From Chloroflexota bacterium (GTDB lineage Bacteria; Chloroflexota; Anaerolineae; Promineifilales; Promineifilaceae), in assembly GCA_013112725.1 (NCBI GenBank), contig JABFFZ010000012.1, positions 1 to 64,000 of the forward strand: a stretch of 64,000 bases of DNA, read 5' to 3'. The position numbers and the translations under genes were made by a program. Of this stretch, positions 12,634-17,026 are shown in pieces (position 1 is the first letter of the stretch; each line of letters begins with the position of its first letter). Below the pieces are notes generated by a model, which worked only from the letters and a program-made list of their open reading frames with translations, had not been told where the DNA came from and searched no databases.

Positions 12634-13806
12634 TTACAGCCCCAGTCCCCAGGTGTATTCCAGGTTGCCAAAACCCTGCCCCATGCTTTCCTTATTGATG
12701 GGGCGGCCCTGAATTTGCCCCTGCACGTCTTCCATGCGGAAGAGGTATTCGTTGTAATTCCAATGGCTGTGGCCGCGCCAGAGGGGGCGCTCCAGGAAAA
12801 AACCGGTGCGAGCGTAGGGCACGGCCGTGAACTGCACAAAATCCCCCGCCTTATTTCCGGCGCTCACCGCAAACTGGGGATGTTCTCCCCGACCCAACAC
12901 GGGCGTCACCCGCGTCTGTTGCGCCAGCCAGATGCGTTCGGAAGCATCCGGCCAATCCCAAAAAGATTTGGGCGCAATAGAGAAGGTAGCCTGCTCTTTC
13001 CGGTTGCTGCTATAAAAATGGTAGCCTTTGCGGAACAGGTTCATACCCACGTAAGGCACATAAGAGGAAAACATGGAGCCATCGGGAAAAAGCGCCCAAA
13101 TCCATTTCCAGGGGAAGGGAGGCACATTCAGGCACACTCGCTGGAAATAGCCATATCCCGCCAGCCTCTCTCGGCCCGTACCTGGCAGGTCAAAATCCCC
13201 TTCAAAGCGCATCCGCCGCCAGGCGATGAAGTGGGTGCCGCCGACGGGGGTGTTGATGTTGATGGATTCGTGGGGGGCATTGTCCAGGCAGTTGAGGTCG
13301 CCCCAGGCAGTGAAGTCGGCACGGCCGTTCCTGCCCTCAATGTGCGCCTCCAGGGCTAACGGCTGGGCCGCAGAGGCGCAAATCTCATACCCCTGGCGAT
13401 GACCGTCTGGCTCATTAGCCCAGCAGGAGATGGTGCGGTCAGGTTGGGAGAGGTGGGTGACGGCCGTGGTGTGCAAGATGTTTTCATGCAGGGTACGGCC
13501 GTCGTAATACCAACCCACTGCCGCCGCCGGAAAACGGTCCACCCCATCTGTCACTTCGCGGCGCAGGTCTAGCCCCGGCAGTTCCAGGTCACTGATGTGG
13601 ATGGGGTGTTTACTGACGGCCGTAGCAATAGAAAACATCATCTGGCGGGGGCCATACCCTTCCACGTCTTGGGGAAACAGGATGAAATACCACCAGGTGG
13701 AGGAGGTACGCTTTTGCATGTGGGGCATTTGCGACCATATCAGGTCATATACCCGTTGGTGTTCGGACACTGTTTTGTAGGGAATCATAAAAGGGCGCAG
13801 GACCAT
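12634..13806 (-). CDS. Conserved protein of unknown function, possibly AttH/CrtC-like lipocalin fold
   Basis: A 390-residue soluble protein rich in Trp, Tyr and Phe, with no signal peptide or membrane helix. The N-terminal SSTWWYFILFPQDVEG and the later WYYDGRTLHENIL are reminiscent of the AttH/carotenoid hydratase (CrtC) lipocalin group, where a WWYF motif opens the first barrel. The match is loose and not decisive. A His/Asn-rich middle (NCLDNAPHESININTP) could form a polar pocket. It follows the molybdopterin oxidoreductase on the same strand after 28 bases, so the two may act together. Start could be ATG 13806 or the internal ATG 13788. Confidence 0.8.
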   Translation of the reverse strand: MVLRPFMIPYKTVSEHQRVYDLIWSQMPHMQKRTSSTWWYFILFPQDVEGYGPRQMMFSIATAVSKHPIHISDLELPGLDLRREVTDGVDRFPAAAVGWYYDGRTLHENILHTTAVTHLSQPDRTISCWANEPDGHRQGYEICASAAQPLALEAHIEGRNGRADFTAWGDLNCLDNAPHESININTPVGGTHFIAWRRMRFEGDFDLPGTGRERLAGYGYFQRVCLNVPPFPWKWIWALFPDGSMFSSYVPYVGMNLFRKGYHFYSSNRKEQATFSIAPKSFWDWPDASERIWLAQQTRVTPVLGRGEHPQFAVSAGNKAGDFVQFTAVPYARTGFFLERPLWRGHSHWNYNEYLFRMEDVQGQIQGRPINKESMGQGFGNLEYTWGLGL

Positions 13807-13834: not shown

Positions 13835-14485
13835 TCAAAACCAGCGATTGGCAAAGCGCTGTTCCGTCCAGGGATCGGCTTCATTGTGATAACCGGCATT
13901 TTCCCAGAAACCGGGCTGGTCATCGGCGCGGAATTCCAGGCCGCGCAGCCATTTGCCCCCTTTCCAGAAATAGGCTGTCTGCTTTTCGCTGCGGTCGGCA
14001 AAACTGCCGATCACCCCGCGCAAGGGCCAGCCGTGTTCCAAATCTAGCGGCTTGCCGTCGTAATGGGTAGCCAGCAGAAAGTTGTCGGCCGTCACCAATT
14101 CCAGGGGTGTGTTGGTGGTGTAGCCATATTCGCAATGCTGAATGACATAGCGGGCGGTGGGCAGCGGCTTGATAAAGCCCTGGTCAATCAGGGTTTTCAG
14201 CGAAACCCCTTCCCATAGCGTATCAAACTTTGACCAGCGGGTGACGCAGTGAATGTCTAGCATTACCTGGGTGCGGGGTAGCTGGTTGAACTCCTCCCAA
14301 TTCCAGGTAATGGGTTGTTCCACCGCGCCAAAGACCTTCAAATCCCAGGTGGCCAGGTCGGTGCGGGGCACAGGGCCGTAGTGCAAAACGGGGAATTTTT
14401 GGGTAAGGGATTGGCCGGGTGGCAGGCGCATCTGTCCCTTCACGGCATCCTCTTGCTCGCGGCGTCCTAATACTCGGTTGAACAT
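13835..14485 (-). CDS. Molybdopterin-dependent oxidoreductase, sulfite-oxidase family
   Basis: About 216 residues covering the catalytic Moco domain of the sulfite oxidase/YedY superfamily. The molybdenum-ligating Cys is in DIHCVTRW. FDTLWEGVSLKTLID, HCEYGYTTNTPLE and LEHGWPLRG follow as in the family. No Tat signal and no dimerisation domain are present, so it is probably cytoplasmic or a short form. ATG 14485 has AAGGAG at good spacing. A promoter with a perfect palindrome across its -10 box lies upstream, so it is likely repressor-controlled. Substrate unknown. Confidence 0.92.
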   Translation of the reverse strand: MFNRVLGRREQEDAVKGQMRLPPGQSLTQKFPVLHYGPVPRTDLATWDLKVFGAVEQPITWNWEEFNQLPRTQVMLDIHCVTRWSKFDTLWEGVSLKTLIDQGFIKPLPTARYVIQHCEYGYTTNTPLELVTADNFLLATHYDGKPLDLEHGWPLRGVIGSFADRSEKQTAYFWKGGKWLRGLEFRADDQPGFWENAGYHNEADPWTEQRFANRWF

Positions 14486-14508
14486 GGGGCGTCTCCTTGT
14501 AGCTGTAT

Positions 14509-14527
14509 GTCTATGACCATCATAGAC
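14509..14527 (-). promoter_or_regulatory. Promoter -10 box within a perfect palindrome (operator) upstream of the Moco oxidoreductase
   Basis: GTCTATGACCATCATAGAC is an 8-3-8 perfect palindrome. On the minus strand it contains TATGAT (14519-14524), which lies 16 bases from a TTGCTC -35-like box. A repressor bound here would block the -10 region. The two adjacent ArsR-type regulators are candidates, but their own operator sequence differs. Confidence 0.6.
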
Positions 14528-14624
14528 GAATTTGTGACCTGAGCAATACAGACAGCATATTAACCATATTTTCTTACGAGGCAATTACCAGCGAGTAACA
14601 GGAGGATGAAAGAAGAGATCCGCT

Positions 14625-14658
14625 AAACCAGACAGGTTTTTAGAAACCTGTCTGGTTT
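14625..14658. repeat. CCTGACAGG-family hairpin
   Basis: Perfect 15-base arms (AAACCAGACAGGTTT and complement) flank the loop TTAG. It lies just downstream of the minus-strand ArsR gene ending at 14662 and may terminate it. Confidence 0.85.
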
Positions 14659-14661
14659 TAT

Positions 14662-15228
14662 TTAGACCAACCGCCAATACATGTTGGCATTGTCGCGGGC
14701 CATGAGGCGGTCTTCCACCATGTAGCGGCGCAGGGAGGCACAGTCGGGGTGGTAGGCGCGCAGCCGTTCGTTTAGTTCCAGTTCATGATACCGCCGGCCG
14801 GGTTCAAACTGCGCACACAACCATTGCAAGACGACCAAACGTTTTTTGTGTTTAGAGGGGATGTCTTTGAGACGGCCGTCTACCACATAATAGCGCAGCA
14901 CCTTGTCCTCCCAGGCGTCACCCGTTTCATCAGTTGCCAGCGTTGCCAGATTACTCTGCGAAAAGATGTCCCGGCTCAGGTTTTCCAGGAATTGCGTTTT
15001 GAGCCAATACACCCGGTTATTCCCTTCCACGCGCACATCAATCAGCCCTAGCTCTTTCATGGCTGCCAGATGGTGAGAGACCGTCGGTTCGCGCAACTCC
15101 AGCAAAGCTGCCAGTTCGCCTACCGTGCGTTCGTCGTTGGCCAGCAGCCCCAATATCTTCAAGCGGCTTTCATTGCCCAACACCTTGAAAAATTGGAGCA
15201 GGGTGTTGAAGTGTTGTTCTTCACTCAT
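14662..15228 (-). CDS. ArsR-type regulator with C-terminal DUF2087 domain
   Basis: A 188-residue regulator. The winged helix (about 10-90) shows VLGNESRLKILGLLANDERTV and the recognition helix REPTVSHHLAAMKELGLI. The C-terminal half carries DUF2087, seen as FEPGRRYHELELNERLRAYHPDCASLRRYMVEDRLM. No ArsR metal-binding CxC pair is present in the recognition helix, so the signal is probably not a metal bound there. ATG 15228 is preceded by TGAGGA; an upstream start at 15267 would be encoded by the hairpin repeat. It is a diverged paralogue of the upstream gene and probably co-transcribed with it. Confidence 0.92.
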   Translation of the reverse strand: MSEEQHFNTLLQFFKVLGNESRLKILGLLANDERTVGELAALLELREPTVSHHLAAMKELGLIDVRVEGNNRVYWLKTQFLENLSRDIFSQSNLATLATDETGDAWEDKVLRYYVVDGRLKDIPSKHKKRLVVLQWLCAQFEPGRRYHELELNERLRAYHPDCASLRRYMVEDRLMARDNANMYWRLV

Positions 15229-15240
15229 GGTTATATCCTC

Positions 15241-15272
15241 AGAGATTGGAGATTGAAGAATCTCCAATCTCT
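15241..15272. repeat. Hairpin between the two ArsR genes
   Basis: Perfect 14-base arms (AGAGATTGGAGATT and complement) with the loop GAAG. It supplies the last codons and the TAG stop (15271-15273) of the upstream ArsR gene. Confidence 0.8.
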
Positions 15273-15843
15273 AATCTCCACTAAAATGCTCCGCCAACGG
15301 TCGCCAGTAGTGCCGCCCCGTTTGTTGCAGAAAACGGTGGTCGGCCAAAATGCGGCGTAACGTTAGTGGTTTGTCAAAGTATTGCTGTACCAGGTCGGTG
15401 ACTTCTGTTTCCGTATAACGCCGGTCCGGTTCAAACTTTTCAGCCATCCAGCGCAGAATGACGGCCCGTTCTTCCGGGCGGTGGGGAATGGCCCGCAGCC
15501 GGTCATTGGCAACGTATTGGCGCAGTACACGCTCCTCCAGATTTTCCGGCGTGACGTTGCCGTCTACAATGTTTTGCAAATCATCCAGGCCGGTGTTGCT
15601 GAAGGAGAAGGTGGGTATATGATCAACGGCACGCTGTATTACCAACCCGGCGGTTTGTAAGGCGTGCAGGTGGTGGGTCACGGCCGTCTCCTTCATCCCA
15701 GATGCCTCTACCAGTTCCGGCACGGTGCGCGCGTCGTTCGCCAGTAAACCCAGGATGCGCAGCCGGTCTGGTTGGCCGGTCGCTTTGAAGAAGGTTAATA
15801 ACGCTTCCATCTGGTGGTCAGGTTTGTGGTTCATCTCACTCAC
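15271..15843 (-). CDS. ArsR-type regulator with C-terminal DUF2087 domain (paralogue)
   Basis: A 190-residue paralogue of the following gene with the same layout: winged helix (ATGQPDRLRILGLLANDARTV, then KETAVTHHLHALQTAGLV) and DUF2087 (FEPDRRYTETEVTDLVQQYF, then TLRRILADHRFL). Four half-sites of an operator start directly upstream of its ATG, so autorepression is very likely. The final Gly-Asp-stop comes from the hairpin repeat. The two paralogues in tandem could form heterodimers or read different signals; this is inference. Confidence 0.92.
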   Translation of the reverse strand: MSEMNHKPDHQMEALLTFFKATGQPDRLRILGLLANDARTVPELVEASGMKETAVTHHLHALQTAGLVIQRAVDHIPTFSFSNTGLDDLQNIVDGNVTPENLEERVLRQYVANDRLRAIPHRPEERAVILRWMAEKFEPDRRYTETEVTDLVQQYFDKPLTLRRILADHRFLQQTGRHYWRPLAEHFSGD

Positions 15844-15844
15844 T

Positions 15845-15900
15845 CTATTTAGATGCCTTTCTATTTAGATGATTATCTAAATAGAAGAATATCTAAATTG
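15845..15900 (-). promoter_or_regulatory. Four-half-site operator for the ArsR-DUF2087 regulator
   Basis: CTATTTAGAT occurs at 15845-15854 and 15861-15870. Its complement ATCTAAATAG occurs at 15875-15884, and ATCTAAATTG (8 of 10) at 15891-15900. Spacing between like half-sites is 16 bases, and the centre of symmetry is at about 15872. The inner pair forms a perfect 10-4-10 palindrome. The array ends one base before the regulator's start codon, a classic place for autorepression by two dimers. Confidence 0.8.
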
Positions 15901-16078
15901 TCTGTACCTGTCAACCCCCAATTTGCCAGTGGCAGTGTGGTAAAATGGGCGTGGCGCTGGCGGCGGACTGGTAGCCATATTCGCTATAGTGGAATCAGGC
16001 ATAGCGGGCGGGAATTATCTATTGGCGGCAAAGGCCGGGCTGGTGAGGATATAAGGAAGCCGCTTTGTGCTGTTGAGC

Positions 16079-16849
16079 CTAATCTGCTCCGGTTGTTGGC
16101 TGGCTGGCATCAGCAGGTGCATAAGGCTGATGGAGTTTTATCGGGTCGCGGGTCTTGCGCATACGCAGATTGAGAAACTCCACAAACACGGAAAAGCCCA
16201 TGGCAAAATAGATGTACCCTTTGGGGATGTGTTGGTGCAGCCCTTCCACAATCAGCGTAAAGCCAATCAGCAGCAGGAAGGAGAGGGCCAGCATTTTGAT
16301 GGTGGGGTGGTGTTCCACGAAATTGCCAATGGGGTCGGCGGAAATGATCATCACGGTGGCAGCAATCAGCACGGCGATGACCATAATGGCGATTTCATCT
16401 ACCATGCCTACGGCCGTGATCACCGAATCCAGCGAAAAAACTACATCCAATAAAAGCACCTGGAAAATAACACTGGCAAAAGAAGCCTTTACTGCATCCG
16501 ACGCATGGCCTTCAGCGCCTTCTAGCTTTTGATGAATCTCGTAAGTGGCCTTCCCCATCAAGAACAGCCCACCCAAAAACAATATCAGGTCACGCCCCGA
16601 AACGGCAAACTCAAACACCTCAAAAATAGGTTCCGTCAGCCCAATGATCCAGGAGAGCGAGAAGAGCAGCAGAATGCGCGAGAGAACGGCGAGCGCCAGA
16701 CCGGTGCGACGGGCTTTTGACTGCTGCTCCTTTGGCAGCTTACCGGCCAGAATGGAAATAAAAATGACATTATCTACACCAAGCACCAATTCCAGAGAAA
16801 CCAGGGTTGCCAGGGCTATCCAGGCGCGAGGGTCAGTTAACCAATCCAT
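16079..16849 (-). CDS. TerC-family integral membrane protein
   Basis: A 256-residue membrane protein with seven or more helices. It shows the TerC signatures LELVLGVDNVIFISILAGKLP near the N-terminus and LLLDVVFSLDSVITAVGMV in the middle, each with the conserved acidic residue in a helix. Members of the family export manganese or other metals, possibly with co-translocating membrane proteins, or confer tellurite resistance. The C-terminal tail is hydrophilic (about 30 residues). It stands alone between the ArsR pair and the copper cluster. About 200 bases upstream separate it from copA, with a hairpin repeat. Confidence 0.93.
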   Translation of the reverse strand: MDWLTDPRAWIALATLVSLELVLGVDNVIFISILAGKLPKEQQSKARRTGLALAVLSRILLLFSLSWIIGLTEPIFEVFEFAVSGRDLILFLGGLFLMGKATYEIHQKLEGAEGHASDAVKASFASVIFQVLLLDVVFSLDSVITAVGMVDEIAIMVIAVLIAATVMIISADPIGNFVEHHPTIKMLALSFLLLIGFTLIVEGLHQHIPKGYIYFAMGFSVFVEFLNLRMRKTRDPIKLHQPYAPADASQPTTGAD

Positions 16850-16964
16850 GTTCTTTTGTCACCTTTTGTTGAATCGAATTAAGTGTGCCGAAGCATATCA
16901 CAACTGCTTAAAAAAGCAGCCAGCAGCCATATACGAACATGGCCGGCCACAGTTGCCGAGGGGA

Positions 16965-17026
16965 TGAGACTGGGAAATTGGGAGATTAGGAGACTCAATC
17001 TCTCAGTCTCCTAATCTCCCAATCTC
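16965..17026. repeat. Hairpin array of short words between copA and terC
   Basis: Left arm gagactgggaaattgggagattaggagac, right arm ctcagtctcctaatctcccaatctc. It follows the end of copA on the minus strand. Confidence 0.75.

What the first reader, a model, noticed from the sequence alone, without database searches (positions are those of the whole stretch)
15845..15900. Symmetrical four-half-site operator before an ArsR-DUF2087 gene
Two CTATTTAGAT and two reverse copies lie 16 bases apart about one centre and touch the start codon. Spacing suggests two dimers bound side by side, or one dimer of dimers. Such an arrangement for the ArsR-DUF2087 class is not known to me. The DUF2087 function itself is undefined.
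Basis: partly seen in the sequence, partly recalled or inferred. Interest (0 to 1): 0.62.

Follow-up and report, generated by a model that had tools for sequence, protein, structure and literature searches.

The report
Phased tandem operator of ArsR-DUF2087 repressor
The four matching sequence blocks in front of this gene are part of a longer, regularly spaced row of binding sites for a gene-control protein that probably switches off its own gene, and the same row recurs in distantly related bacteria.

Summary
The four half-sites are the most visible part of a 16-bp lattice: three TAGA-N6-TCTA palindromes (15850-15863, 15866-15879, 15882-15895) separated by two A/T bases, plus one extra half-site (15844-15847), seven exact half-sites in all. 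The first unit encloses the -10 hexamer of a TTGACA-17-TATTCT promoter. The array precedes a two-gene unit of ArsR-DUF2087 paralogues, A and B. In the genus all 24 half-site columns are invariant while the bases between them drift. The same lattice precedes 25 of 43 non-redundant relatives, from Chloroflexota to Nostocales (38 of 43 if variant half-sites are allowed; shuffles at most 1), mostly with 2 or 3 units, up to 5. Every zero-mismatch two-unit array in 26 genomes lies at an ArsR-DUF2087 promoter. Best reading: an autorepressor operator on which B dimers, one per unit, lie side by side over the -10 element. It is not exclusive to DUF2087: four other ArsR loci carry it. ArsR operators are known; an interlocked 16-bp array of variable length is a new variant. 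Nothing was tested at the bench.

The parts
15844..15895 (-). Whole operator array: seven exact half-sites TAGA/TCTA on a 16-bp lattice (three complete units and one half-site)
15882..15895 (-). Unit 1, TAGA-TATTCT-TCTA, encloses the -10 hexamer
15866..15879 (-).
15850..15863 (-). Unit 3, TAGA-AAGGCA-TCTA, between the inferred transcription start and the ATG
15844..15847 (-). Extra half-site TAGA (read on the - strand) after unit 3
   Evidence: kept in the sister genome (L075) but CAGG in three of the five genus sequences
15909..15914 (-). -35 element TTGACA
   Evidence: conserved in register in 12 of 13 Chloroflexota upstreams handled (11 TTGACA, 1 TTGACG)
15886..15891 (-). -10 element TATTCT, 17 bp from the -35, inside unit 1
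15271..15834 (-). Gene A, ArsR-DUF2087 paralogue of 187 aa from ATG 15834 (190 aa from GTG 15843); recognition helix varies among orthologues
14662..15228 (-). Gene B, ArsR-DUF2087 protein of 188 aa (ATG 15228), the likely binder; recognition helix strongly conserved
14625..14658 (-). Terminator-like 15-bp hairpin right after gene B, also present in the four genus relatives

Best explanation
The element is the autoregulatory operator of a two-gene ArsR-DUF2087 unit (A-B). Shown by sequence: three TAGA-N6-TCTA palindromes repeat every 16 bp, separated by two A/T bases; the first encloses the -10 box; the arrangement is conserved at the same place in front of relatives in two phyla. Inferred: one ArsR dimer, most likely B, binds each unit with a recognition helix on each tetramer, in the register of the classical 12-2-12 ArsR/SmtB site. 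Sixteen bp is about one and a half helical turns, so neighbouring dimers would sit on alternating faces with their outer contacts interlocked. Occupancy of unit 1 covers the -10 box and bars RNA polymerase; units 2 and 3 extend the complex over the start site and make repression cooperative. More dimer means more complete shut-off, so the level of the regulator is held within bounds until an unknown signal, perhaps sensed by the winged-helix-like DUF2087 domain, releases it.
For: (a) Spacing in 43 non-redundant upstreams: TAGA to TAGA 16 bp in 45 pairs (next best, other than 32, is 4); TAGA to TCTA 10 bp in 52; TCTA to TAGA 6 bp in 61. The N6/N2 geometry fits 25 of 43, every other spacing tried at most 3. 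At least four exact half-sites in 20 of 43, none in 200 first-order Markov resamplings; coding controls 0 of 99. (b) Footprint in five genus members: half-site columns 24 of 24 invariant, A/T pairs 6 of 6, -35 6 of 6, -10 5 of 6, but N6 of unit 2 2 of 6, of unit 3 1 of 6, spacer 1 of 11. (c) Zero-mismatch two-unit arrays: 25 windows in 15 of 26 genomes, all at ArsR-DUF2087 promoters by coordinates compared by eye. (d) From motif to gene: 301 phylum genomes, 16 sites in 15 genomes, 14 next to an ArsR-type gene, reversed-pattern control 0. (e) TTGACA-17-TATTCT. (f) N-terminal half of B models as ArsR (2oqg Z 14.3, rmsd 6.6 over 106 residues; 6j05 Z 14.1, rmsd 2.0 over 89; CzrA 1r1u Z 13.2, rmsd 2.1 over 83). 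(g) TAGA falls where TGAA falls in a published 12-2-12 site (PMC8790569, passages). (h) B-only loci have the same operator (L079, L082, L070).
Against: No binding, expression or start-site data. 5 of 43 non-redundant upstreams lack even the relaxed lattice (L084, L088, L101, L116, L128). One cyanobacterial group has weaker outer half-sites (TTGA, TCGA) and no -10-like hexamer inside its first unit. Full 12-2-12 sites spaced 16 bp would overlap by 10 bp, so simultaneous occupancy is not certain. Sites with two or more mismatches cannot be told from chance in AT-rich genomes (reversed-pattern control positive in 11 of 26 at <=2 mismatches), so degenerate extra targets are not excluded. Loci were the best 80 of 322 relatives, so distant members are under-sampled.
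Confidence: 0.72

Rival explanations
1. Only one or two dimers bind: the strong central palindrome (unit 2) is the site, the flanks are weak accessory half-sites, or a dimer of dimers spans four half-sites.
For: The four extended half-sites are symmetric about unit 2; many cyanobacterial operators have only two units with perfect inner and weaker outer half-sites.
Against: All 24 half-site columns of three units are invariant in the genus; in L080 and L081 the strongest palindrome is unit 1, not unit 2; L098 has five exact units.
Confidence: 0.13
2. The units are mutually exclusive because full sites overlap: either units 1 and 3 (32 bp, same face) or unit 2 are filled, giving a switch between states rather than a filled row.
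For: 16-bp steps leave a 10-bp overlap of 26-bp 12-2-12 sites (geometry; register from PMC8790569 passages).
Against: The tetramers themselves do not overlap and lie 2 bp apart; arrays of two units, which could hold only one dimer on this view, are the commonest (23 of 43).
Confidence: 0.12
3. Protein A, or an A-B heterodimer, is the main binder.
For: A lies next to the operator and keeps the ArsR domain (HTH_5 37 bits); A and B are adjacent in nine loci.
Against: Recognition-helix residues of A differ among orthologues (THH, SRH, SNH, VKH) while the operator does not; those of B hardly vary. Loci with B alone keep the operator.
Confidence: 0.15
4. It is not an operator but an RNA hairpin, recombination site or mobile-element end.
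For: Inverted repeats lie partly in the inferred leader RNA.
Against: The leader folds no better than shuffles (z -1.05, 29 of 200 as good); the lattice is tied to promoters of one regulator class and to the -10 box.
Confidence: 0.02

Closest known systems
ArsR/SmtB 12-2-12 operators (smt, zia, nmtA, czr; PMC8790569 and PMC6555750, passages)
   Same: Tetramer-N6-tetramer register (TGAA-N6-TTCA in a published Anabaena repeat, TAGA-N6-TCTA here); overlaps core promoter; one homodimer per repeat as stated there.
   Different: Those passages describe one repeat, or two in smt. Here 2 to 5 repeats interlock at a fixed 16-bp step and the first encloses the -10 box.
NolR site (A/T)TTAG-N9-A(T/A) (PMC8960804, passages)
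   Same: ArsR-fold protein with TTAG-type half-sites.
   Different: No array is described in the passages seen; I know of no DUF2087 in NolR (recall).
Rv2034, an ArsR autorepressor (PMC3338718, passages)
   Same: Represses its own promoter through a palindrome with 8-bp arms and a 4-bp spacer.
   Different: One palindrome, other sequence, and it has further targets.
BtmL, an ArsR-like DUF2087 protein of the bottromycin cluster (PMC7113386, passages)
   Same: Same predicted two-domain make-up; lacks the residues of ArsR metal binding, as the paper says.
   Different: No binding site is described in the passages seen (no hit for EMSA or operator).

Membership tests
ArsR/SmtB transcriptional repressors | ArsR winged helix (PF01022) above the curated cut-off | tested here: met
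   A 37.1 and B 57.5 bits against 22
ArsR/SmtB transcriptional repressors | ArsR fold | tested here: met
   B model residues 3-85 on CzrA Z 13.2, rmsd 2.1, 83 aligned
ArsR/SmtB transcriptional repressors | Operator in 12-2-12 register at the core promoter | tested here: met
   Tetramer-N6-tetramer, compared with the Anabaena repeats quoted in PMC8790569; unit 1 around the -10
ArsR/SmtB transcriptional repressors | Metal-binding box ELCV(C/G)D (definition from PMC5658604 passage) | tested here: not met
   B reads GELAALLELREPTVSHHL; A has no Cys, B has Cys 138 and 163 only, outside the ArsR domain. So it is not filed as a metal sensor; members without the box are known (RexT, NolR)
ArsR/SmtB transcriptional repressors | Binds and represses its promoter as a dimer | not testable with these tools
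   Needs protein and DNA in vitro
DUF2087 (PF09860) | Domain above the curated cut-off | tested here: met
   A 66.6, B 87.3 bits against 22.4
SdpR autorepressor family (NF033789) | NCBIfam cut-off of 100 bits | tested here: not met
   A 34.4, B 55.1 bits
Metalloregulator ArsR/SmtB subfamily (NF033788) | NCBIfam cut-off of 55 bits | tested here: inconclusive
   B 75.3 above, A 50.5 below; a name of the model, not proof of metal sensing
Winged-helix fold for DUF2087 | Close structural match to solved winged helices | tested here: inconclusive
   Model pLDDT 92 with H-S-H-H-S-S order, but best Foldseek E 0.12 and best Z 6.0 with rmsd 2.6 over 59 residues (5n35)

The most novel reading that the evidence does not exclude
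ArsR-DUF2087 dimers assemble on DNA as a growing row with a fixed 16-bp step, alternating faces of the helix, with DUF2087 winged-helix-like domains bridging neighbours. The number of units is then an evolvable dial for autorepression strength, and L098 shows it being turned by tandem expansion to five units.
Probability: 0.17. Interest if true: 0.75.

Novelty: new variant of a known kind. Interest (0 to 1): 0.5.

Why it matters
DUF2087 proteins are common and uncharacterised. This gives a widespread subfamily a predicted binding code, a single dominant target (its own promoter) and a simple quantitative test, because nature supplies arrays of 2, 3 and 5 units at comparable promoters. It would show how ArsR proteins can be stacked in a fixed phase, which single 12-2-12 sites do not.

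Tried and rejected
RNA hairpin in the leader: no signal. Scattered regulon: none at useful stringency in the own genome; of 14 sites in 59 relatives at <=1 mismatch (window genome included), 11 precede ArsR-DUF2087 genes, one an ArsR gene without DUF2087 (G010), and two (G033:C8, G054) show no ArsR gene next to them. Molybdoenzyme gene 13835-14584 as a co-transcribed target: it follows B in the genus (5 of 5 loci with the window), but a strong hairpin lies between and none of the other Chloroflexota loci has it nearby, so it is not claimed. G211 and the second G340 site had no ArsR gene beside them and are counted as misses. L082 was dropped from the column count because the script found no -35 in the expected register. 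Papers: nine answered searches listed no paper that, by title and abstract start, treats an ArsR array with a 16-bp step; the nine papers with TCTAATTAGA are not on ArsR by title. The library lacks most subscription journals.

Full report
What is there. All four are present, one with a mismatch. Read in the direction of the gene, the sequence is TTGACA-GGTACAGACAA-TT-[TAGA-tattct-TCTA]-tt-[TAGA-taatca-TCTA]-aa-[TAGA-aaggca-TCTA]-aa-TAGA-g. So there are three palindromic units of 14 bp with 2-bp A/T links, a 16-bp step, and one extra half-site. The four half-sites that stood out are those extended to TTTAGA or TCTAAA by the A/T link.

The promoter. TTGACA at 15914-15909 and TATTCT at 15891-15886, 17 bp apart, is the only promoter-like match in 15700-16100 (10 of 12; 0.5 expected in shuffles). 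The -10 hexamer is exactly the N6 of unit 1. In 12 of 13 Chloroflexota upstreams that I handled, TTGACA or TTGACG stands in the same register to a first unit; the thirteenth (L082) was dropped because no such register was found.

The genes. The array precedes gene A, ATG 15834 (aligned with relatives) or GTG 15843, then gene B; both have an ArsR domain and DUF2087. The upstream gene TerC (16079-16849) is on the same strand, so this is not a divergent promoter. A strong hairpin follows B in the window and in four genus relatives, so A-B is probably the whole unit. A molybdopterin oxidoreductase gene follows after it in the genus only.

Is it more than chance? In the own genome the palindrome has one exact copy and the next matches have three mismatches, in total no more than the reversed control (10 against 11). 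The two-unit array is found only here at up to 2 mismatches. I collected 80 of 322 relatives of B from a genome collection, giving 99 regulator ORFs, 86 leading genes and 43 non-redundant upstreams. Exact lattices of at least three half-sites stand in 25 of 43 and of at least four in 20 of 43, against none in 200 resamplings; with variant half-sites 38 of 43, against at most 1 in 300 resamplings. No other pair of spacings reaches more than 3 of 43, and coding controls give 0 of 99.

Conservation. Among five genus members the half-sites do not change (24 of 24 columns) while the N6 of units 2 and 3 and the spacer do (2 of 6, 1 of 6, 1 of 11). In Nostocales the link is AT, giving TCTAATTAGA; a second cyanobacterial group has TTGA/TCGA outer half-sites. 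A mechanical lattice count over the 43 gives two units in 23, three in 14, one in 4, four in 1 and five in 1; the rule tolerates mismatches, so single weak units and the four-unit case (L082, first unit poor) should not be pressed. L098 has five exact units, four of them with the same N6, which looks like tandem expansion.

Which protein binds? Probably B. Its recognition helix (consensus REPTVSHHLAAMKE) hardly varies among the 12 orthologues aligned, down to 43% overall identity, with T49, S51, H52, H53 and L54 invariant. A varies there among 9 orthologues whose operators do not. Loci with B alone (for example L079, L082) keep the operator. This is inference, not proof.

Is it a DUF2087 trait? 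No. In 301 Chloroflexota genomes, 16 sites at <=1 mismatch fall in 15 genomes, with none for the reversed pattern. Ten precede ArsR-DUF2087 genes (five checked by Pfam; the other five by sequence). Three (G079, G128, G185) precede an ArsR protein of about 370 aa with another N-terminal part (DUF5937 below cut-off). One (G215) precedes a plain ArsR with a methyltransferase-like gene (that name is my reading of the sequence). Two have no ArsR gene beside them. The site follows the ArsR helix of type PT[VI][ST]HHL rather than DUF2087.

How it probably works. The register tetramer-N6-tetramer is that of the 12-2-12 sites of SmtB-type repressors, for example AATACCTGAACA-GA-TGTTCAAGTATT (PMC8790569, passages), where one homodimer is said to sit on each repeat (PMC6555750, passages). 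I therefore place one dimer on each unit. Sixteen bp is 1.5 turns, so neighbours alternate faces (inference; dimer pairs on opposite faces are known to me by recall from DtxR-type repressors). Unit 1 blocks the -10 box. Since the exact array is found only at this promoter, autorepression is the main function that can be read from sequence. The signal is unknown: the classical metal box is absent and there is no conserved cysteine. DUF2087 models with high confidence and a winged-helix order of elements, but structure matches are weak.

Verdict. A real, deeply conserved operator of known family type with an arrangement that I did not find described in the papers searched. Observation confirmed, interpretation partly supported.

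Noticed in passing
15244-15269, and a looser copy near 16963-17026: A dispersed intergenic hairpin repeat, GATTGGAGATT-N4-AATCTCCAATC; 18 forward and 20 reverse hits at <=1 mismatch in the own genome, reversed-pattern control 0. One copy sits between genes A and B here and in the sister genome, not in the other genus members.
   Followed up: partly
L098 upstream of the ArsR-DUF2087 gene (about 90 bp before the start): Operator array expanded to five units, four with the identical N6.
   Followed up: partly
L126, L127, L129, L130, L132: Two ArsR-DUF2087 genes in tandem about 0.7 kb apart, each with its own array, of different outer half-site types.
   Followed up: no
L198:4006-5445, L197, L199, L061:5468-6508: A family of 346-369 aa ArsR proteins with a large N-terminal part shares this operator type; in L198 a transporter-like gene follows.
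   Followed up: partly
14625-14658: 15-bp perfect hairpin after gene B, -24.5 kcal/mol for the 70-base stretch folded, conserved in the genus with a changed stem in L077 and L078.
   Followed up: partly
12634-13806: 390-aa ORF without Pfam or NCBIfam match, about 89-91% identical in the genus and downstream of the molybdoenzyme gene.
   Followed up: no
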